A DNA stretch of 64,000 bases, taken from contig OY282382.1 of the NCBI GenBank assembly GCA_958295905.1, positions 1,264,001 to 1,328,000 of the forward strand, given 5' to 3'. This document shows, one piece after another, positions 4,207 through 48,867 of the stretch. The first letter of the stretch is position 1. Each line of letters begins with the position of its first letter. This stretch comes from an uncultured Vicinamibacterales bacterium (lineage in GTDB: Bacteria > Acidobacteriota > Vicinamibacteria > Vicinamibacterales > UBA8438). The translations under genes were made by a program, and so were the position numbers. The notes under the pieces are model-generated. The model did not search any database, was not told the origin of the DNA, and worked only from the letters and a program-made list of their open reading frames with translations.

Positions 4207-4235
4207 GGGTGCACGTCAGATTTGTGAGATGCCCC

Positions 4236-5585
4236 TCAAGCGGCCTTTGCGGCTCGTCGTTCCCAGAAATCCTCGAAGCGGCCGCTGAGCTTGCAGCACC
4301 GCAGGGCGATGATGGCGTTGGCGCCGGCCACCGTCCAGTGCATGCCGGCCCGCTTGAGCCGGGCGCCGATGGCGTGTTTGCATCCCGCCTCGACGACGCC
4401 CGATGACACGCAAAGACCCCACGCGCGGAACTCCGCATAGCGCATCCGGTGGCGGTTGCGGGTCAGGTAGTCGATACACTTGCGGGCTTCATCGCAGGTC
4501 TGGCGGTGGGGGCGCAGGGCGGTCAGGACCGCCCCGATCCGCCCCGCGTCCAACTCGTCCCGCCGGTCCTTGCCCCACCGGGCGGCGAGGTCCGTGCCGG
4601 CGCCGTAGACGGCCTTGGCCACATCGCACAGATGCCCCTTGGCGTGGTAGAGGTCGACGATTTCGATGGCGCCGGGGAACTGTTCGGCGGACAGATTCCA
4701 GATCCACTCGGCCCCGTCGCCGATGACGACGCGACGCGACGCGGTGTCGAAGTCGCGCCGCCGCGCTTCGCGGTACGCCCGTTGCGCGAACGGGGACGGC
4801 TGCGGGTCGGCGTCGCGGCCGGCCGCGCTCTCGACCGCAGCGCTGTAGCTGACCGAACCGCGGTCCCGGACGGGCAGGCCGTCCCCGTCGCGCGTTTCCG
4901 CCGTCCACACCGTGACCAGCTTGACCTCGCGGGTCTTGGCCGAACCGTCGGGCTGCTTGCCGCGCCGCCCGGCCGTCTCGGACTTGCGCACCGGCACCCC
5001 GGTGCCGTCCAACCCGAGGTACATCGTCGGCGCCGCGGCGGGGGCGGGTTCGACCACCCCGCGTTCGTCGGCCGCGACCGCGCATCCCAGCGCTTCGGCG
5101 GTACGCTCGACCTGCTTGGCCCCGATGCGCATCCCGGTCAAATCGCTCAACAACCCGCTCGCGTCGGCGAAGCTCCCATCCGCCGCCACCAGTCCCACCA
5201 TCCGCGTGAGGGCGGGGGACAGCGCGGTGCCGTGCAGGCCCAACGCTTGGTCCCGCGGGCACACGCCCGCGCGGCAGGCGGCGCAGTAGTAGTAGGCGCG
5301 TTCCAGCGTCACCGGCCCCAGTACGGTGCCGAACGTCTTCGGGCGGCGGCCGGCGTAGCGCGCCGTCTGTCCGCAGGCGCACACCACCGTCGGGCCGCAG
5401 GAGTCGGTGCGGTCCGCGTTCAGTTGGTGCTCTACCTCCCCCGCGGCGGCGTCGAGCACCCCGCGGCGGACGGCTTGTTCGAAGGCCTCGAAGTCCTGCC
5501 CGGACGCCCCCGGTCCGACGAGTTCGGCGATCCCGGTGGCAATCTTGAGGTTGATCCCGGCCGCGAACGCTTCCGCCGGGCCCCC
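4236..5585 (-). CDS. IS copy 1 transposase (ISKra4 family), made by -1 frameshift
   Basis: This frame encodes the DDE-type transposase. Acidic candidates lie in YLGLDGTGVPV, VVIGDGAEWIWNL and SSGVVEAGCKHAIGARLK, which match the DDE motifs of the ISKra4 group as I recall them. A Cys-rich finger (CACGQTARY with YYYCAACRAGVCP) precedes the catalytic core. The frame is open from the slippery heptamer at 5591-5585. The first start-like codon inside it is a GTG at 5459, but homology-like sequence (AFAAGINLKIATGIAEL) continues upstream of it. I therefore infer expression by -1 slippage from the frame starting at 5971, giving AEKK followed by GGPAEAF. Internal initiation at 5459 would leave 407 residues. 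Confidence 0.85.
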   Translation of the reverse strand, partial: GGPAEAFAAGINLKIATGIAELVGPGASGQDFEAFEQAVRRGVLDAAAGEVEHQLNADRTDSCGPTVVCACGQTARYAGRRPKTFGTVLGPVTLERAYYYCAACRAGVCPRDQALGLHGTALSPALTRMVGLVAADGSFADASGLLSDLTGMRIGAKQVERTAEALGCAVAADERGVVEPAPAAAPTMYLGLDGTGVPVRKSETAGRRGKQPDGSAKTREVKLVTVWTAETRDGDGLPVRDRGSVSYSAAVESAAGRDADPQPSPFAQRAYREARRRDFDTASRRVVIGDGAEWIWNLSAEQFPGAIEIVDLYHAKGHLCDVAKAVYGAGTDLAARWGKDRRDELDAGRIGAVLTALRPHRQTCDEARKCIDYLTRNRHRMRYAEFRAWGLCVSSGVVEAGCKHAIGARLKRAGMHWTVAGANAIIALRCCKLSGRFEDFWERRAAKAA

Positions 5586-5971
5586 TTTTTTTCCGCCGCG
5601 GCGGGGGGCGGCGGCGGAGCGGCGGGGCGCGGGCGCCCGGCCGCCAGCCGGGCTTCACTCAGCGCATCGCTGACCTCGATCAACGCTTTCGACAACTCCC
5701 GGAAGCGCCGGTACTCCGCGTTCTGCGCCTGGACTTCCGCACCCGCGTCCGCCGGAATCAGCCGCGTCACCGTCTTGCCGTCCTGCTTGCGCGTCAGCGA
5801 CAGGACCGGGCCGCGTCCCGAGGCCCCCCGGTCGGCGCAACCACAGGATGCCTTGCCGCAGCGGCGGCACCGCTCCGTCAGCGTCCCTGAACGCATCTCG
5901 CCGACCGCGGCCAACTGACTCCGAAGGTGGGCGTGGCGCCGCTCCAGGGCGGCAATCTGCGCATCGGACAT
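5432..5971 (-). CDS. IS copy 1 first frame (DUF6788-like N-terminal part)
   Basis: The zero-frame product is 179 residues. It begins with a predicted helical segment and a zinc-ribbon-like stretch (RCRRCGKASCGCA), then SLTRKQDGKTVTRL, as in small DUF6788-type proteins next to ISKra4 transposases. A strong ribosome site, GGAGGAG, precedes the ATG at 5971. After residue 129 the zero frame becomes low-complexity Arg/Pro/Ser, unlike a folded domain. The preceding AAA AAG codons lie in a canonical slippery site (5591-5585), so the useful product is probably the -1 fusion with the downstream transposase, about 578 residues. Confidence 0.75.
   Translation of the reverse strand: MSDAQIAALERRHAHLRSQLAAVGEMRSGTLTERCRRCGKASCGCADRGASGRGPVLSLTRKQDGKTVTRLIPADAGAEVQAQNAEYRRFRELSKALIEVSDALSEARLAAGRPRPAAPPPPPAAAEKKGARRKRSRPGSTSRLPPGSPNSSDRGRPGRTSRPSNKPSAAGCSTPPRGR
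5585..5591 (-). promoter_or_regulatory. Canonical -1 ribosomal slippery site, copy 1
   Basis: A AAA AAG lies in the correct phase relative to the first frame (GAA AAA AAG, codons 127-129). A -1 slip enters the transposase frame as GGG GGC CCG. The same heptamer is present in copy 2 at 7479-7485. Confidence 0.7.
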
Positions 5972-6082
5972 GATCGGGCTCCTCCAGGCTCAAAACAGCC
6001 TCCATACTGATAGCATCGGTCGATCACGCCTTGCTCTACATCCCCAACGACATTCCCTAACCAACAAATCTGACGTGCACCC

Positions 6083-6100
6083 ACCGTGGCAGTGCCCGAC
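6083..6100 (+). repeat. 18-bp linker between the two IS copies
   Basis: The linker is exactly two 9-mers: ACCGTGGCA (6083-6091, right target duplication of copy 1) and GTGCCCGAC (6092-6100, immediately left of copy 2). The second 9-mer is not repeated to the right of copy 2 but is the target duplication of the 181-bp miniature element at 11070. Confidence 0.85.
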
Positions 6101-6129
6101 GGGTGCACGTCAGATTTGTGAGATGCCCC

Positions 6130-7479
6130 TCAAGCGGCCTTTGCGGCTCGTCGTTCCCAGAAATCCTCGAAGCGGCCGCTGAGCTTGCAGCACCGCAGGG
6201 CGATGATGGCGTTGGCGCCGGCCACCGTCCAGTGCATGCCGGCCCGCTTGAGCCGGGCGCCGATGGCGTGTTTGCATCCCGCCTCGACGACGCCCGATGA
6301 CACGCAAAGACCCCACGCGCGGAACTCCGCATAGCGCATCCGGTGGCGGTTGCGGGTCAGGTAGTCGATACACTTGCGGGCTTCATCGCAGGTCTGGCGG
6401 TGGGGGCGCAGGGCGGTCAGGACCGCCCCGATCCGCCCCGCGTCCAACTCGTCCCGCCGGTCCTTGCCCCACCGGGCGGCGAGGTCCGTGCCGGCGCCGT
6501 AGACGGCCTTGGCCACATCGCACAGATGCCCCTTGGCGTGGTAGAGGTCGACGATTTCGATGGCGCCGGGGAACTGTTCGGCGGACAGATTCCAGATCCA
6601 CTCGGCCCCGTCGCCGATGACGACGCGACGCGACGCGGTGTCGAAGTCGCGCCGCCGCGCTTCGCGGTACGCCCGTTGCGCGAACGGGGACGGCTGCGGG
6701 TCGGCGTCGCGGCCGGCCGCGCTCTCGACCGCAGCGCTGTAGCTGACCGAACCGCGGTCCCGGACGGGCAGGCCGTCCCCGTCGCGCGTTTCCGCCGTCC
6801 ACACCGTGACCAGCTTGACCTCGCGGGTCTTGGCCGAACCGTCGGGCTGCTTGCCGCGCCGCCCGGCCGTCTCGGACTTGCGCACCGGCACCCCGGTGCC
6901 GTCCAACCCGAGGTACATCGTCGGCGCCGCGGCGGGGGCGGGTTCGACCACCCCGCGTTCGTCGGCCGCGACCGCGCATCCCAGCGCTTCGGCGGTACGC
7001 TCGACCTGCTTGGCCCCGATGCGCATCCCGGTCAAATCGCTCAACAACCCGCTCGCGTCGGCGAAGCTCCCATCCGCCGCCACCAGTCCCACCATCCGCG
7101 TGAGGGCGGGGGACAGCGCGGTGCCGTGCAGGCCCAACGCTTGGTCCCGCGGGCACACGCCCGCGCGGCAGGCGGCGCAGTAGTAGTAGGCGCGTTCCAG
7201 CGTCACCGGCCCCAGTACGGTGCCGAACGTCTTCGGGCGGCGGCCGGCGTAGCGCGCCGTCTGTCCGCAGGCGCACACCACCGTCGGGCCGCAGGAGTCG
7301 GTGCGGTCCGCGTTCAGTTGGTGCTCTACCTCCCCCGCGGCGGCGTCGAGCACCCCGCGGCGGACGGCTTGTTCGAAGGCCTCGAAGTCCTGCCCGGACG
7401 CCCCCGGTCCGACGAGTTCGGCGATCCCGGTGGCAATCTTGAGGTTGATCCCGGCCGCGAACGCTTCCGCCGGGCCCCC
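6130..7479 (-). CDS. IS copy 2 transposase (ISKra4 family), made by -1 frameshift
   Basis: The translation matches that of copy 1, with the same LDGTGVP, IGDGAEW and VVEAGCK motifs and no inactivating change visible. Both copies therefore look competent to transpose. The stop at 6130 lies close to the left inverted repeat. Confidence 0.85.
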   Translation of the reverse strand, partial: GGPAEAFAAGINLKIATGIAELVGPGASGQDFEAFEQAVRRGVLDAAAGEVEHQLNADRTDSCGPTVVCACGQTARYAGRRPKTFGTVLGPVTLERAYYYCAACRAGVCPRDQALGLHGTALSPALTRMVGLVAADGSFADASGLLSDLTGMRIGAKQVERTAEALGCAVAADERGVVEPAPAAAPTMYLGLDGTGVPVRKSETAGRRGKQPDGSAKTREVKLVTVWTAETRDGDGLPVRDRGSVSYSAAVESAAGRDADPQPSPFAQRAYREARRRDFDTASRRVVIGDGAEWIWNLSAEQFPGAIEIVDLYHAKGHLCDVAKAVYGAGTDLAARWGKDRRDELDAGRIGAVLTALRPHRQTCDEARKCIDYLTRNRHRMRYAEFRAWGLCVSSGVVEAGCKHAIGARLKRAGMHWTVAGANAIIALRCCKLSGRFEDFWERRAAKAA

Positions 7480-7865
7480 TTTTTTTCCGCCGCGGCGGGG
7501 GGCGGCGGCGGAGCGGCGGGGCGCGGGCGCCCGGCCGCCAGCCGGGCTTCACTCAGCGCATCGCTGACCTCGATCAACGCTTTCGACAACTCCCGGAAGC
7601 GCCGGTACTCCGCGTTCTGCGCCTGGACTTCCGCACCCGCGTCCGCCGGAATCAGCCGCGTCACCGTCTTGCCGTCCTGCTTGCGCGTCAGCGACAGGAC
7701 CGGGCCGCGTCCCGAGGCCCCCCGGTCGGCGCAACCACAGGATGCCTTGCCGCAGCGGCGGCACCGCTCCGTCAGCGTCCCTGAACGCATCTCGCCGACC
7801 GCGGCCAACTGACTCCGAAGGTGGGCGTGGCGCCGCTCCAGGGCGGCAATCTGCGCATCGGACAT
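7326..7865 (-). CDS. IS copy 2 first frame (DUF6788-like N-terminal part)
   Basis: Same 179-residue product as in copy 1, starting at the ATG at 7865 behind GGAGGAG. The slippery A AAA AAG is at 7485-7479, and the expected functional product is the -1 fusion with the transposase frame. Confidence 0.75.
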   Translation of the reverse strand: MSDAQIAALERRHAHLRSQLAAVGEMRSGTLTERCRRCGKASCGCADRGASGRGPVLSLTRKQDGKTVTRLIPADAGAEVQAQNAEYRRFRELSKALIEVSDALSEARLAAGRPRPAAPPPPPAAAEKKGARRKRSRPGSTSRLPPGSPNSSDRGRPGRTSRPSNKPSAAGCSTPPRGR

Positions 7866-7985
7866 GATCGGGCTCCTCCAGGCTCAAAACAGCCTCCATA
7901 CTGATAGCATCGGTCGATCACGCCTTGCTCTACATCCCCAACGACATTCCCTAACCAACAAATCTGACGTGCACCCCCGTGGCAG

Positions 7986-8463
7986 GCCGTCCCACGCTCC
8001 GCCACCGCCGTGCGCAGGCGGAATCGTGGCGGATCCTGGCCCAAGTTTACCCAGTTGACCGGTCATTTTGCCGATCTTGGCTGTATTTCGGGTCTTTCAT
8101 GTCCGTAAGTTATTGATTCTAAAGGATCTGGTTTTATTGTCGTGTAATTGTAGTGCCATAATTTTCAAAGATGGGTTGGCTGGGGTAGATCCACCCGCCA
8201 TCGCGGGCATCGTGTTCCGCAAGACGCTCATCTGACCGACCCCTCTCACCGGTTTGGGTACGTTTGTAGTGCCACTCGAGTATTTCTGTCGGCGTAAGCT
8301 GCTTATTTACAGTATTTTATATTTATGGCTGGTAAACTTGGGCTGGGGCTCTGGACGTGCGGAATCGTGGATCTCACGCGATGCCGGCCGGTCGCCGAAA
8401 CGGCGGCGACCCCTCGAATCGGGGGCGGGCCGTCACGCGCCGTCAGCGTGGGATGCTCCTGCT
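7986..8463 (-). repeat. Dispersed palindrome-ended repeat (family R), copy 1, split by an insertion
   Basis: Left part 7986-8039 and right part 8343-8463 together match the family R unit (about 170 bp, ends CATCCCACGCT / AGCGTGGGATG). Other copies are at 9352, 9522, 28051 and 37789. Between the parts lies a 303-bp AT-rich element. The gene-free stretch 7977-8553 contains only this repeat, its insertion and the hairpin at 8497. Confidence 0.8.
8040..8342. mobile_element. AT-rich 303-bp miniature element with 12-bp terminal inverted repeats
   Basis: It begins CCCAAGTTTACC (8040-8051) and ends GGTAAACTTGGG (8331-8342), a perfect 12-bp inverted repeat. CTGG flanks both sides (8036-8039, 8343-8346), and removing the element plus one CTGG restores the repeat seen at 37789. 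Its base composition is strikingly AT-richer than its surroundings. No reading frame of transposase size is present. The 4-bp duplication and CC ends recall IS1380-like elements, but the family is uncertain. Confidence 0.75.
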
Positions 8464-8496
8464 ACCGCGGCGGAGCGTGGGATGGCGGGCTGCAGC

Positions 8497-8551
8497 GGGT
8501 GCGCGTCGGATTCGTGCCGGGGGCGTCCTTGCGCAAATCCGACGCGCACCC
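8497..8551. repeat. 55-bp hairpin with ISKra4-like inverted ends
   Basis: GGGTGCGCGTCGGATT (8497-8512) pairs with AATCCGACGCGCACCC (8536-8551), leaving a loop of about 23 nt. The arms resemble the IS ends nearby (GGGTGCACGTCAGATT) with two A-to-G differences. It lies 2 bp after the larB stop codon, so it could end larB transcription, although no T-tract follows. Confidence 0.65.
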
Positions 8552-8553
8552 GC

Positions 8554-9324
8554 CTACAGATGGTTGATCTGGCTGGCGAGGGCGGCGGCGCCGAACCCGT
8601 TGTCGATGTTGACCACCGCCACCCCCGTCGCGCAACTGTTCAGCATCGCGAGCAACGCGGCGACGCCCCCGGCGCCGGCGCCGTAGCCCACGCTCGTGGG
8701 CACCGCGACGACCGGCGCCGCGACCAGCCCGCCGACCACGCTCGCGAGGGCGCCCTCCATGCCCGCGGCCACCACGATGACCCGGGCCTCCTCCAGACGC
8801 GTCCGTGCCGACAGCAGCCGGTGCAGGCCGGCGACCCCGACGTCGTAGAGCCGCTCGACGCGGTTGCCCATGACCGCGGCGGTGACCGCCGCTTCCTCCG
8901 CCACCCGCTGATCGGCGGTGCCGCCCGACACCACGAGGATTGTGCCCCGGCCGGTCGGCTCCGGGTGCGCGGTACGGCTGATGATGCCGGCTTCCGGGTG
9001 GAAGACGGCATCGTTCACGCGTTCGCGGACCGCGTCGAACGCGGCGTCGTCGGTTCGCGTCACCAGCAGGGTCTGGTTCGCCTCGACGATCCGGGCCGCG
9101 ATGTCCGCCACTTGGCCCGGGGTCTTGCCGGCGCCGAAGACGACCTCGGGGAAGCCCTGCCGGATGGCCCGATGGTGATCGATGCGGGCGAACCCGAGGT
9201 CCTCGAACGGCGCGCGCCGCATCGACGCGGCCACTTCCGCCTGGGCCGCGTCCACGTCGAGCGCCCCCCCGCGCACCTGCTCCAGAAGAGAACGAAGCCT
9301 CTCGGGTTCCATGCCTACGATCAT
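8554..9324 (-). CDS. larB: Nickel pincer cofactor biosynthesis protein LarB
   Basis: LarB carboxylates and hydrolyses nicotinic acid adenine dinucleotide to make the pyridine-dicarboxylate precursor of the nickel-pincer nucleotide cofactor. The 256-residue protein has a PurE-like C-terminal domain with the glycine-rich stretches LVVSGGTADQRVAEEA, AAGMEGALASVVGGL and PTSVGYGAGAGG, and the closing NIDNGFGAA typical of LarB. The N-terminal helical part (MEPERLRSLLEQVRGG) also fits. The ATG at 9324 gives MIVGMEP; the ATG at 9312 (MEPERL) is equally possible. No larC or larE lies nearby. Confidence 0.9.
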   Translation of the reverse strand: MIVGMEPERLRSLLEQVRGGALDVDAAQAEVAASMRRAPFEDLGFARIDHHRAIRQGFPEVVFGAGKTPGQVADIAARIVEANQTLLVTRTDDAAFDAVRERVNDAVFHPEAGIISRTAHPEPTGRGTILVVSGGTADQRVAEEAAVTAAVMGNRVERLYDVGVAGLHRLLSARTRLEEARVIVVAAGMEGALASVVGGLVAAPVVAVPTSVGYGAGAGGVAALLAMLNSCATGVAVVNIDNGFGAAALASQINHL

Positions 9325-9351
9325 ACAGACGGCGGCGGGGGGCGGATCGGC

Positions 9352-9509
9352 AGGGGCATCCCACGCTGACTGCGCGTGACGGCCCGCCCCCGATTCGAGG
9401 GGTCGCCACCGTCTTGCCGATCAGCCGGCGCCGCGTGAGACCCACGATTCCGCCCGTCCGGAGCCCCAGGACCCGCCACGATTGGCGGTGGCGGAGCGTG
9501 GGATGGTCC
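9352..9509 (+). repeat. Dispersed repeat family R, copy 2
   Basis: Unit from GCATCCCACGCT to AGCGTGGGATGGTCC, lacking about a dozen bases near its 3' end compared with copy 3 next to it. Together with copy 3 it fills the 426-bp gap between larB and the citrate synthase gene. Confidence 0.85.
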
Positions 9510-9521
9510 TGGGCGGATCGG

Positions 9522-9691
9522 CAGGAGCATCCCACGCTGACTGCGCGTGACGGCCCGCCCCGATTCGAGGGGTCGCCACCGTCTTGCCGATCAGCCGGCG
9601 CCGCGTGAGACCCACGATTCCGCCCGTCCGGAGCCCCAGGACCCGCCACGATTCCGCCTGCGCACGGCGGTGGCGGAGCGTGGGATGGTCC
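9522..9691 (+). repeat. Dispersed repeat family R, copy 3
   Basis: About 170 bp in direct orientation to copy 2, with a 12-bp spacer. The ends CATCCCACGCT and AGCGTGGGATG are inverted repeats. An inner segment CCACGATTCCGCCTGCGCACGG is present that copy 2 lacks in part. Confidence 0.85.
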
Positions 9692-9735
9692 TGGGCGGAT
9701 CGGCGCCGGCGGTTGCGGTCCGCCGCCGGGACCAC

Positions 9736-9741
9736 TATTCT
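9736..9741 (+). promoter_or_regulatory. Possible -10 box (TATTCT) close to the citrate synthase start
   Basis: TATTCT ends 9 bases before the ATG at 9751 and no Shine-Dalgarno sequence is visible, so transcription may begin at or next to the start codon. Similar spacing occurs before lepA and thiC. Confidence 0.35.
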
Positions 9742-9750
9742 TCGGGACCC

Positions 9751-10977
9751 ATGACCAGGCAGTCGACGGCGGCGGGGCTCGACGAGGTCGTCGCGGCCAC
9801 GTCGCGGATCTGTTATCTCGACGGGCAGCGCGGCGTGCTGGCCTATTGCGGGCACGACATCCACGACCTCGCGCGCCACGCGACCTTCGAGGAGGTGTGC
9901 CACCTGCTCTGGCGCCGGCGGCTGCCGACCCGGGCCGAGCTCGGCGATCTGCAGACCGATCTGGCGCGGCACCGCGCCCTCCCGGAACCGGTGATCCGCC
10001 TGCTGCGGGCGCTGCCGCCCGGAGATCTCATGGATGCGGTGCGCACCGGGGTGTCGGCGCTGGCGCATCACGATCCGGATGCCGGGGGGGACGATTCGGC
10101 CGCGGCGTCGCGGCGCAAGGCGGTGCGGCTGACGGCCCAGATCGGCACGCTGGTGGCGACGCTGGGAAGACTGGCCGCGGGGGGCGCGCCGATGACGCCG
10201 GATCCGGCGCTGGGGCACGCCGCCAACTTCCTGTATCTCCTCACCGGAGACCGTCCGGGCGCGCTCGCCGCGCGCGCGTTCGACGTGGGGTTGATCCTCC
10301 ACGCCGACCACGAGCTGAACGCGTCGACGTTCGCCGCGCGGGTGGCCGCGGCGACCCTCACCGACCTGCACTCGACCATCGTGGCGGGGGTCGCGGCGTT
10401 GAAGGGACCCCTGCACGGCGGGGCGAACGCCGCCGTCATGCGGATGCTGACGGCGGTCGGCGACGATGCCGACGACCGGCGGGTCGAGGACGTCATCCGC
10501 GGCATGCTCGCCGACAAGCGGCGGGTGCCCGGCTTCGGCCATCGGGTCTATCGCACCGAGGATCCCCGCGCGACCCATCTGCGCCGGATGTCGCGGGACC
10601 TCGGCGAGCAGACGGGACGGCCCCGCTGGTTCGCGATCTCCGAACGCATCGAGAAGCTGATGAAGGCGGAGACCGGGATCGACGCGAACGTCGACTTCTA
10701 TTCCGCGTCCACCTACCACGTGCTCGGGATCCCGATCGATCTGTTCACGCCCATCTTCGTGGTGAGCCGGGTGGCGGGCTGGACCGCGCACGTGCTGGAG
10801 CAGTACGCGAACAACCGCCTGATCCGGCCGCGGGCGGAGTACGTGGGGCCCGAATACCCGCAGGCGTTCGTGCCGCTGGCCGATCGGCAGGCGCCCTCGG
10901 CGCAGGCGTTTGCGCCGGGGAACGGCGGACGCCGCGAAACCGGCGCCGACTCCCGCTGGGAGGTGCCGACTCCCTGA
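9751..10977 (+). CDS. Citrate synthase-family protein (citrate or 2-methylcitrate synthase)
   Basis: It condenses acetyl-CoA or propionyl-CoA with oxaloacetate. The 408-residue protein is of the short (type I) bacterial form. Catalytic elements are visible: HADHELNAST, KGPLHGGANAAVM with the catalytic His, VPGFGHRVYRTEDPR, and the catalytic Asp in NVDFYSAS. The C-terminal RPRAEYVGP is typical. Sequence alone does not separate citrate from methylcitrate synthase; prpB and prpD are not in the window. The ATG at 9751 starts MTRQSTAAGLDEVV, and the upstream frame runs through repeat DNA, so a longer product is unlikely. Confidence 0.9.
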   Translation: MTRQSTAAGLDEVVAATSRICYLDGQRGVLAYCGHDIHDLARHATFEEVCHLLWRRRLPTRAELGDLQTDLARHRALPEPVIRLLRALPPGDLMDAVRTGVSALAHHDPDAGGDDSAAASRRKAVRLTAQIGTLVATLGRLAAGGAPMTPDPALGHAANFLYLLTGDRPGALAARAFDVGLILHADHELNASTFAARVAAATLTDLHSTIVAGVAALKGPLHGGANAAVMRMLTAVGDDADDRRVEDVIRGMLADKRRVPGFGHRVYRTEDPRATHLRRMSRDLGEQTGRPRWFAISERIEKLMKAETGIDANVDFYSASTYHVLGIPIDLFTPIFVVSRVAGWTAHVLEQYANNRLIRPRAEYVGPEYPQAFVPLADRQAPSAQAFAPGNGGRRETGADSRWEVPTP

Positions 10978-11282
10978 ACCGCCCGCGGCGAACCCCGCGC
11001 CGCCCCGAGAGCGGCGCGGCCGCCAGCGGGCGGAGGAGCGCCCGCGGGCGAAGAGCGCCCGTGCCCGACGGGTGCACGTCAAGTAAAGTGAGACGGTGCC
11101 GTTGGGGGTATCCGGCGCGGGCGGCCCCGAGGCGCCCCATCGTGTCGAAGCTCGAAAGGCCCGTTCGGAGGGCATCCAGGCCGGGAACGGGATCGGAATC
11201 GCCAATCTGGCAGCGACAGGGCGGCCGTCTCACAAATCTGACGTGCACCCGTGCCCGACCAAACCTGAGGAGGGCGCCGGTT
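10976..11282 (+). repeat. Dispersed repeat F4, copy 1, interrupted by a miniature transposon
   Basis: Segments 10976-11069 and 11251-11282 match the intact copy at about 48649-48761 (core AGCGCCCGCGGGC, then CGCCCGTGCC, GACCAA and GAGGGCGCC). Copy 2 has no insertion and so shows the empty site. The 436-bp gap to lepA holds this repeat, the miniature element and repeat F5. Confidence 0.65.
11070..11250. mobile_element. 181-bp miniature transposon with ISKra4-like ends
   Basis: The right end, read inward, is GGGTGCACGTCAGATTTGTG, identical to the left end of the IS copies at 4207 and 6101 and continuing to GAGA. The left end is GGGTGCACGTCAAGTAAAGTG. Perfect 9-bp duplications GTGCCCGAC flank it (11061-11069 and 11251-11259). 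The interior is not transposase sequence. It is probably mobilised in trans by the full-length elements. Confidence 0.85.
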
Positions 11283-26614: not shown

Positions 26615-30135
<3,521 letters not shown>

Positions 30136-37555: not shown

Positions 37556-37788
37556 ATGTTCGATATGTCCGAGATGTTCCCTCGCGGCGTCTTGCCGGCC
37601 GGGCGTCCTGAGCCCGCCGGCGAACCCGCCCATCCCGGCGCAACCTACGGTTTTGCCACGGGCTCCCGGGCGGAGCGGGCGGTTCATTGGAGAGGACGGG
37701 CGCGGAGGGTCGTCGCGGGAGCCGGCCTCCAACCGAAGAATACCACGCGCCGATCCGTTTCACGCCGGCTCCGGCGCGGCCGGAACCA

Positions 37789-37959
37789 GGACCATCCCAC
37801 GCTCCGCCCCCGCCGTGCGCAGGCAGCATCGTGGCGGGTCCTGGGGCTCCAGACGTGCGGAATCGTGGGTCTCACGCGGCGCCGGCCGGTCGGCAAGACG
37901 GTGGCGACCCCTCGAATCGGGGGTGAGCTGTCACGCGCAGTCAGCGTGGGATGCTCCTG
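37789..37959 (-). repeat. Dispersed repeat family R, copy 5, overlapping the folC 3' end
   Basis: Unit in reverse orientation (starts GGACCATCCCACGCT, ends AGCGTGGGATGCTCC). Its last 19 bases provide the final residues and stop codon of folC. The rest of the 385-bp lptD-folC gap (37556-37788) shows nothing recognisable beyond a weak minus-strand TATTCT at 37742-37737. Confidence 0.85.
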
Positions 37960-39326
37960 CGGCCGGAACCCCCCCCTCCGCGCAGGGCCGCGAGGAGCTC
38001 GCCCACGAGAAAGATGGAGCCGGTCGCGCAGACCGTCCCGGCGTGGCGCCAGGCGGCTTCCAGCGCCCGCCGGGGGTCGTCCTCGACGGTCACCGGCGGC
38101 GCCCCCGCCCGCCGCCGCACGCGCTCGGCGAGGGCCGGGGCGGGGGTCGCCCGCGGGGTGTCCGGCGCGGTGCAGACGATGTGGCTGGCGCAGGGGGCGA
38201 GGTGGCCGAGGACGCCGTCGGCGTCCTTGTCGCGCATGACCGCGCACACGATGGGCAGGCGGTCCGGAAACGCATCGCGCAGATGCCGGGCCAGCGCCGC
38301 CGCCGCGGCCGGATTGTGGGCGGCGTCGAGCAGCACCGCGCCGCGTCCGGGCACGCGGACGAGGTCGAGGCGCCCCGGCCACACCACGTCCGAGAGCCCG
38401 CGGACGATGGCCTCGGCCCCGACCGGCAGACCGGCGTCGGCGAGCCCCTCCAGCAGGCGGATCGCGCCGGCCGCATTCGAGCGCTGATGGGCGCCGGCGA
38501 GACCGGGGCGAAACGGCGGATAGCGGTGACCGGGGGTGGTGACCCGAATCTCGGGGGTGCCGGGCCGCCCCGCGATCTCGGTGTCCCGCCCCGCGGGGAT
38601 GAGCCGCGCACCGCGCCGCCGGCAGGCTTCCTCGATGACCGACAGGGCCGCCGGGGCGGTCTCGGTGGTGACGACGGCCATGCCCGCCTTGACGACCCCC
38701 GCTTTTTCGGCCGCGATGGCCTTGATGGTGCCGCCGAGGTGCTCCTGATGGTCGAGCCCGATGCTGGTGATGACCCCCGCCACCGGTGTCACCACGTTGG
38801 TGGCGTCGAGCCGTCCCCCGAGACCGACCTCGACCACCGCCAGGTCGACCTCCGCGCGCCGGAACCACGACAGCGCGATCGCCGTCGCGGCCTCGAAGAA
38901 CGTGGGCGGACGGGACAGCCCGCCCGCGCGCACGAGCGCCCCGGCCCGCCGGAGGACCCGCGCCGCCTCTTCGCGCAGCGCCGGTTCGCCGATCGCGGCG
39001 CCGTCGACGGCGAAGCGTTCGGTGATCGACACGAGGTGGGGCGAGGTGTACCGGCCGGTGCGGTACCCGGCGGCGCGCAGGGCGCTGTCGATCATCGCCG
39101 CCACCGAGCCCTTGCCGTTGGTGCCGGCCACGATGATCGCGGGATAGGCGCCCTGGGGGTCGCCGAGGGCCGCCATCAGGCGGCGGATGGTGTCGAGCCC
39201 GGGCCGGATGCCGAAGCGCTCGAGCCCGAACAGCCGATCCAGCGGATCCGGCGGATCCCGCGGACCCGGCGGCCGCGGGGGGGTATCCGCAACGGGGGCG
39301 TCTTCGAACCGATGGTCCGGCGGCAT
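37941..39326 (-). CDS. folC: Folylpolyglutamate synthase / dihydrofolate synthase
   Basis: ATP-dependent Mur-ligase-like enzyme that adds glutamate to dihydropteroate and folates. 461 residues with P-loop IVAGTNGKGSVAAM, SPHLVSITERFAVDG, VVEVGLGGRLDATNVV, SIGLDHQEHLG and C-terminal LLDAAHNPAAAAAL. The N-terminal 30 residues are Pro-rich and variable; the conserved part begins at DPLDRLFGLERFGI. The last residues (GRRSIPR) are encoded by dispersed repeat R copy 5, implying the original 3' end was replaced. Divergent from the HEAT/cyclophilin gene. Confidence 0.94.
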   Translation of the reverse strand: MPPDHRFEDAPVADTPPRPPGPRDPPDPLDRLFGLERFGIRPGLDTIRRLMAALGDPQGAYPAIIVAGTNGKGSVAAMIDSALRAAGYRTGRYTSPHLVSITERFAVDGAAIGEPALREEAARVLRRAGALVRAGGLSRPPTFFEAATAIALSWFRRAEVDLAVVEVGLGGRLDATNVVTPVAGVITSIGLDHQEHLGGTIKAIAAEKAGVVKAGMAVVTTETAPAALSVIEEACRRRGARLIPAGRDTEIAGRPGTPEIRVTTPGHRYPPFRPGLAGAHQRSNAAGAIRLLEGLADAGLPVGAEAIVRGLSDVVWPGRLDLVRVPGRGAVLLDAAHNPAAAAALARHLRDAFPDRLPIVCAVMRDKDADGVLGHLAPCASHIVCTAPDTPRATPAPALAERVRRRAGAPPVTVEDDPRRALEAAWRHAGTVCATGSIFLVGELLAALRGGGGSGRRSIPR

Positions 39327-48644: not shown

Positions 48645-48648
48645 GGCC

Positions 48649-48761
48649 GTCAGCCGCCCGTGGCGAACCCCGCGTCGCCCCGAGAGCGGCGAGGGCGCCG
48701 GCGCGCTGAAGAGCGCCCGCGGGCAAAGAACGCCCGTGCCTGACCAAGCGTGGGGGAGGGC
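48649..48761 (+). repeat. Dispersed repeat F4, copy 2 (uninterrupted)
   Basis: Matches 10976-11069 plus 11251-11282. The target of the miniature element there reads CGTGCCTGACCAA here without insertion. With the F3 hairpin it fills the first part of the 424-bp uppP-hppA gap. Confidence 0.65.
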
Positions 48762-48867
48762 GCCTATCGGGGATGGGCAACCGACGAACAACGCAGTCAG
48801 ACGGGATGCATCGCCGCTCGAAGGCACCGGGGACTGTCGCCACGGCGTGTCCGGCCGCGCGGCCGGC

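What the first reader, a model, noticed from the sequence alone, without database searches (positions are those of the whole stretch)
11061..11259. Non-autonomous 181-bp relative of the IS, with the same 9-mer as the IS linker
The miniature element carries ISKra4-type ends and perfect GTGCCCGAC duplications. The same 9-mer stands at the left of IS copy 2, joined to the same end sequence, so GTGCCCGACGGGTGCACG occurs at both loci. Either the target is strongly preferred or flanking DNA moved between loci. The empty site is visible in repeat F4 at about 48730.
Basis: seen in the sequence. Interest (0 to 1): 0.6.

Follow-up and report, generated by a model that had tools for sequence, protein, structure and literature searches.

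The report
IS-plus-MITE transposon multiplied core genes
The 181-base miniature element is the right-hand end of a 5,150-base hybrid transposon (full insertion sequence on the left, miniature element on the right) that picked up two neighbouring core genes, larB and citrate synthase, and copied them to five other places in the same chromosome.

Summary
The sequence facts hold: a 181-bp element with ISKra4-type ends lies at 11070-11250 between perfect GTGCCCGAC repeats, and GTGCCCGACGGGTGCACG also begins IS copy 2. F4 shows the empty site. The stated alternatives (preferred target, or moved flanking DNA) resolve to a third reading. The miniature element is one of 44 matches in the genome, and six copies are 100% identical. 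Each of those six lies about 3.1 kb downstream of an IS copy in the same orientation. The mobile unit is 6101-11250: IS left end, larB, citrate synthase, MITE right end. At five other loci the whole 5,150-bp unit (one copy has a 182-bp deletion) is flanked by perfect, unrelated 9-bp target duplications, and GTGCCCGAC is internal cargo there. In the window, the outer GTGCCCGAC pair is therefore the unit's own flanking duplication. dnaG-mutS2-larB-citrate synthase-lepA is conserved in relatives, which have one larB each; this genome has six. The window is the ancestral locus. The 18-bp IS-IS linker equals the left flank of the original IS plus the right flank of the MITE. I infer an excision scar or captured circle junctions. 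Mechanistically this is an IS/MITE-bounded composite transposon: a new variant of a known kind.

The parts
6101..11250 (.). 5,150-bp IS/MITE-bounded composite transposon (mobile unit)
   Evidence: Six copies in the genome. Four of the five dispersed copies differ from the window copy at one base only; the fifth has the same base change plus a 182-bp deletion. Exact 9-bp TSDs at the five other loci
6101..7976 (-). IS copy 2 (1,876 bp, ISKra4 family); its left end is the left end of the composite
   Evidence: NF033572 298.6 bits on the identical copy 1; IS length and solo-copy 9-bp TSDs
4207..6082 (-). IS copy 1, flanked by ACCGTGGCA on both sides
   Evidence: sequence; identical to copy 2 over the IS
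6083..6100 (+). 18-bp linker ACCGTGGCA+GTGCCCGAC = left 9-mer of the original IS site + right 9-mer of the MITE; the only tail-to-head IS-end junction with a 4-30 bp spacer found in the genome
8497..8551 (+). 55-bp sequence with ISKra4-like inverted ends (GGGTGCGCGTC...GACGCGCACCC) inside the cargo
   Evidence: sequence; no TSD seen
8554..9324 (-). larB cargo gene (nickel-pincer cofactor biosynthesis)
   Evidence: NF033503 LarB 285 bits, cutoff 175; six 100% copies here, at most one in each relative
9751..10977 (+). citrate synthase cargo gene
   Evidence: TIGR01800 457.8 bits; six identical intact copies
11061..11069 (+). GTGCCCGAC, left TSD of the original MITE insertion; internal cargo in all six composite copies
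11070..11250 (+). 181-bp MITE; its right end (23 bp identical to the IS left end) is the right end of the composite
11251..11259 (+). GTGCCCGAC, right flank of the MITE and of the composite
6092..6100 (+). GTGCCCGAC, left flank of the composite (pairs with 11251-11259)
48647..48830 (+). F4 dispersed repeat (at least 40 genomic copies): empty-site homologue of the MITE insertion site

Best explanation
Shown: the MITE inserted into an F4 repeat between citrate synthase and lepA with 9-bp duplication GTGCCCGAC. An ISKra4-family IS lies between mutS2 and larB at ACCGTGGCA. The IS left end and the MITE right end share 23 identical bp in inverted orientation. The whole segment between them, including larB and citrate synthase, sits as one 5,150-bp unit at five further loci with perfect 9-bp target duplications. 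Inferred: the IS transposase pairs the IS left end with the MITE right end, skipping the IS right end, and moves the segment as a composite transposon, probably through a circular copy, as reported for related Mutator-type transposases. Inferred, less certain (about 0.45): the 18-bp IS-IS linker records local excision or circularisation and reinsertion at the ancestral locus, because it joins the left 9-mer of the original IS site to the right 9-mer of the MITE.
For: All six 100% MITE copies lie 3,095 bp (one 2,913 bp) downstream of a 100% IS copy in the same orientation. Unit ends coincide with the IR ends, and the five flanking 9-mer pairs are exact: CAGCGTGGG, CAAAGCTGG, CGCCGGCGC, CCGGCCGCC, CCCGTCGAT. 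GTGCCCGAC is internal in all six. At one locus the joined flanks give a continuous 360-aa reading frame. Gene order dnaG-mutS2-larB-CS-lepA is conserved in relatives with at most one larB each, so the cargo is native and the window is the source. F4 empty site. Literature: circular forms of related Mutator-type elements carry 6-10 bp from one flank between the IRs (PMC3942029).
Against: No transposition was observed. Transposase activity on a mixed IS/MITE end pair is inferred from TSDs only. The linker history is not uniquely determined: IS1 and IS2 share a T at unit position 547, while all five dispersed copies have C. IS2 lacks the first A of the right-hand duplication (CCGTGGCA) while IS1 has it. 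The tandem IS could in principle be an assembly error; no reads were available.
Confidence: 0.93

Rival explanations
1. The IS and MITE each inserted independently at GTGCCCGAC because the transposase strongly prefers that 9-mer.
For: GTGCCCGAC adjoins IS2 and both sides of the MITE.
Against: 20 other target 9-mers differ, best match 6/9. The 18-mer occurs genome-wide only in the composite copies and at IS2. IS2's right flank is CCGTGGCAGG, so IS2 alone has no GTGCCCGAC duplication.
Confidence: 0.02
2. The six copies are ordinary segmental duplications made by homologous recombination between IS or repeat copies.
For: The genome is rich in dispersed repeats.
Against: Unit boundaries coincide exactly with IR ends at all five loci, each with a different perfect 9-bp duplication, and one insertion interrupts a reading frame that is continuous in the joined empty site.
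Confidence: 0.02
3. For the linker only: the composite was excised, leaving ACCGTGGCAGTGCCCGAC, and then a solo IS and the composite inserted anew into the two adjacent 9-mers of that scar.
For: Removing IS1 with one ACCGTGGCA and the composite with one GTGCCCGAC leaves exactly the joined outer flanks, and both insertions have perfect 9-bp TSDs.
Against: It needs two independent insertions at the very sites used before, which is improbable in a 6.3-Mb genome without target preference.
Confidence: 0.25
4. For the linker only: both 9-mers are captured circle junctions. A solo-IS circle with spacer ACCGTGGCA and a composite circle with spacer GTGCCCGAC recombined with the resident copies, followed by loss of one composite copy.
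For: Circles of related Mutator-type elements have 6-10 bp spacers taken from one flank (PMC3942029). It explains why ACCGTGGCA next to IS1 keeps the A that IS2's right flank lacks, and why IS1 and IS2 share the T allele.
Against: No circle detected; several steps needed; the window holds the only such junction in the genome.
Confidence: 0.45
5. For the linker only: the tandem IS pair with its 18-bp linker is a chimeric read or mis-assembly.
For: Identical tandem 1.9-kb repeats are error-prone in assembly (general knowledge, not tested).
Against: The linker consists of two exact 9-mers that match the two outer target duplications, which a chance mis-join would not be expected to produce.
Confidence: 0.1

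Closest known systems
Composite (compound) transposons such as Tn5 or Tn10
   Same: Cargo genes between two transposase-recognised ends, moved as a unit with target duplications
   Different: Only one end is a full IS; the other is a 181-bp non-autonomous MITE, and the cargo is native core metabolism rather than acquired resistance
TIME-COMPs (Tn3-derived MITE-bounded transposons; PMC13367494, PMC4133298)
   Same: A MITE supplies a functional end and cargo is moved with direct repeats at the outermost IRs
   Different: TIME-COMPs are bounded by two MITEs of Tn3 type with 5-bp repeats and need transposase in trans; here one end is an ISKra4-family IS that can supply transposase itself, with 9-bp repeats
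ISKra4-family IS (p-MULT 4, Mutator superfamily; PMC3942029)
   Same: Transposase profile, IR ends, 8-9 bp DRs
   Different: The published family consists of ISs and transposons with internal passenger genes; an IS/MITE composite is not mentioned in the passages read
MITEAba12 / ISAba12 (PMC6382973)
   Same: MITE with IS-like TIRs and 9-bp TSDs next to its presumed parent IS
   Different: Other IS family; there the MITE is merely located inside Tn6645, an IS1-family composite, and does not form its end

Membership tests
ISKra4-family IS (for the IS copies) | transposase matches the ISKra4 model above cutoff | tested here: met
   NF033572 298.6 bits against cutoff 205
ISKra4-family IS (for the IS copies) | 8-9 bp direct repeats on insertion | tested here: met
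   two solo IS copies have perfect 9-bp repeats, a third 8 of 9
ISKra4-family IS (for the IS copies) | transposition through a circular form | not testable with these tools
   stated for related Mutator-type families in PMC3942029, not assayed here
MITE of this IS | short, no transposase, ends match the IS | tested here: met
   181 bp; right end 23 bp identical to the IS left end, 19 bp to the IS right end; left end 12 bp
MITE of this IS | multiple copies with the same TSD length as the IS | tested here: met
   44 matches; 12-17 of 25 independent copies with 9-bp TSDs, 0.07-0.34 expected
MITE of this IS | internal deletion derivative of the IS (not required of all MITEs) | tested here: not met
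   only the ends match; no internal similarity beyond short chance words
Composite transposon | cargo and both bounding elements move as one unit with TSD at the outer ends | tested here: met
   five loci with exact 9-bp TSDs
Composite transposon | both ends are IS copies | tested here: not met
   the right end is a MITE; so it works like a composite transposon but is a hybrid-ended variant
TIME-COMP | bounded by two copies of a Tn3-type MITE with 5-bp repeats | tested here: not met
   one IS plus one ISKra4-type MITE, 9-bp repeats

The most novel reading that the evidence does not exclude
The 18-bp IS-IS linker is a chromosomal record of two circular transposition intermediates, one of the solo IS (spacer ACCGTGGCA) and one of the IS/MITE composite (spacer GTGCCCGAC). 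It would show that ISKra4-family transposase circularises mixed IS/MITE end pairs and that the circles feed back into the donor locus by recombination, while larB and citrate synthase are amplified to six intact copies.
Probability: 0.35. Interest if true: 0.55.

Novelty: new variant of a known kind. Interest (0 to 1): 0.47.

Why it matters
It documents, with source locus, empty-site homologue and five target sites all in one genome, how a 181-bp passive element next to native genes turns them into cargo: a full IS and a MITE whose right end copies the IS left end suffice. It raises core metabolic genes (larB, citrate synthase) to six intact copies, a dosage change not seen in the relatives searched. 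The linker makes circular intermediates of ISKra4-type elements testable by PCR.

Tried and rejected
Target preference for GTGCCCGAC: rejected. Six independent MITE insertions: rejected because the citrate-synthase side of all six is the same sequence (GTGCCCGAC and at least 1,400 bp in the pairs compared) while the other side differs at each locus. Cargo imported from elsewhere into the window: rejected by conserved gene order in relatives and by the F4 repeat running across the MITE site. MITE as a simple internal deletion of this IS: rejected, no shared interior. Second IS/MITE composites: the extended IS copies in L200/L201 turned out to be other ISKra4-type units; none with this MITE was found. 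Four paper searches gave no report of an IS/MITE-bounded composite, but subscription literature is not covered. The organism's name was not determined.

Full report
Observation. The element is exactly 181 bp (11070-11250) with GTGCCCGAC at 11061-11069 and 11251-11259. The 18-mer GTGCCCGACGGGTGCACG is at 11061 and at 6092, the left end of IS copy 2 (0.03 expected). The IS copies are 4207-6082 and 6101-7976 (1,876 bp each, identical, ISKra4 family), separated by 18 bp.

The element is one of a MITE family. In the window's own genome (6.3 Mb, 3 contigs) there are 44 matches. Among 25 independent near-full-length copies, 12 have 9-mers matching at 8-9 positions at the exact ends (17 if the ends may shift by 2 bases), against 0.07 (0.34) in shuffled flanks. 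Targets show no resemblance to GTGCCCGAC beyond 6 of 9 bases. The MITE shares only its ends with the IS: its right end is identical to the IS left end for 23 bp and to the IS right end for 19 bp, while its own left end is identical for only 12 bp.

The key result. All six 100% identical MITE copies lie 3,095 bp (one 2,913 bp) downstream of a 100% identical IS copy in the same orientation. Taking the unit from IS left end to MITE right end (6101-11250, 5,150 bp), the five dispersed copies are identical to it except for one base (unit position 547; T in the window, C elsewhere) and, in one copy, a 182-bp deletion (window 9484-9665 equivalent) between short repeats GGCGGTGGCGGAGCG. Each of the five is flanked by a different perfect 9-bp direct repeat: CAGCGTGGG, CAAAGCTGG, CGCCGGCGC, CCGGCCGCC, CCCGTCGAT. 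GTGCCCGAC lies inside the unit, left of the MITE, in all six; genome-wide the 18-mer occurs only at those six places and at IS2. So the pair GTGCCCGAC at 6092 and 11251 is the flanking duplication of the whole unit.

Source locus. The gene order dnaG-mutS2-larB-citrate synthase-lepA is complete in several members of the same family and partly visible, at contig ends, in the two same-genus drafts. Of 30 relatives searched, 29 have exactly one larB and one has none; this genome has six and six identical, intact citrate synthase genes. F4, the dispersed repeat into which the MITE inserted, has at least 40 copies; with the MITE and one 9-mer removed the window copy aligns continuously with the others. 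Hence the cargo is native and the window holds the ancestral insertion. At one target (L064) joining the flanks gives a continuous 360-aa frame, so that copy appears to interrupt a gene.

Mechanism. By its footprint the ISKra4 transposase pairs the IS left end with the MITE right end, ignoring the IS right end between them, and inserts the unit with 9-bp duplications. In related Mutator-type elements (IS256, ISLre2, TnGBS, Mycoplasma ICEs) circular forms exist, and the ends in such circles are reported to be separated by 6-10 bp from one flank (PMC3942029). A composite circle would thus have the junction MITE-right, GTGCCCGAC, IS-left; the last two parts are what stands at 6092-6109.

The linker. 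ACCGTGGCA+GTGCCCGAC (6083-6100) is the left flanking 9-mer of the original IS site followed by the right flanking 9-mer of the MITE, and it is the only tail-to-head junction with a 4-30 bp spacer found in the genome. Deleting IS1 with one ACCGTGGCA and the unit with one GTGCCCGAC leaves exactly the joined outer flanks. Two histories fit: (a) excision of the unit leaving this scar, then new insertions into both 9-mers; (b) capture of two circle junctions by recombination with loss of one unit. I favour (b), because (a) requires two hits on previously used sites, and (b) explains why the 9-mer beside IS1 keeps the A missing beside IS2 and why both window IS copies share the T allele. This part is inference.

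Known or new. The parts are known: ISKra4-family IS, MITEs moved by a parent IS, composite transposons, MITE-bounded TIME-COMPs (PMC13367494). A composite bounded by one IS and one MITE, formed in place around native core genes and multiplied to six copies, was not found in the papers searched, which do not cover subscription journals. I rate it a new variant of a known kind.

Noticed in passing
L200 4634-9220; L201 (3,207-bp unit); L202: Three longer ISKra4-type units: the IS (98-99% to the window IS) is joined on its right to extra DNA. Two have exact 9-bp flanks, CGAGAACCC (L200) and GCGCCGATC (L201). L200 also contains an IS110-family transposase frame inside. The passenger proteins are unidentified.
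   Followed up: partly
window 5586-5592 (and the same place in IS copy 2): Run of seven A on the coding strand inside the overlap of the DUF6788 frame and the transposase frame; the transposase match starts only at model position 40, so a programmed frameshift may join the two.
   Followed up: partly
window 8497-8551: 55-bp sequence with ISKra4-like inverted ends (GGGTGCGCGTC...GACGCGCACCC) within the cargo, without a flanking duplication; possibly a second, smaller miniature element.
   Followed up: no
unit position 547 (window IS1, IS2; L031): T in both window IS copies and one solo IS, C in all five dispersed composites and two other solo IS copies, suggesting conversion or local duplication after the dispersal.
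   Followed up: partly
L021, L197, L202: Two MITE copies and one IS copy are cut off at the same foreign sequence (GACGACTGGCGCGGTGGCGGTAGG), which looks like the end of another mobile or recombining element.
   Followed up: no
window 9340-9709, 28038-28227, 37771-37980: Dispersed 150-190 bp repeat with CGTGGGATGCTCCTG motifs in both orientations; one composite copy (L060) inserted into such a repeat.
   Followed up: no
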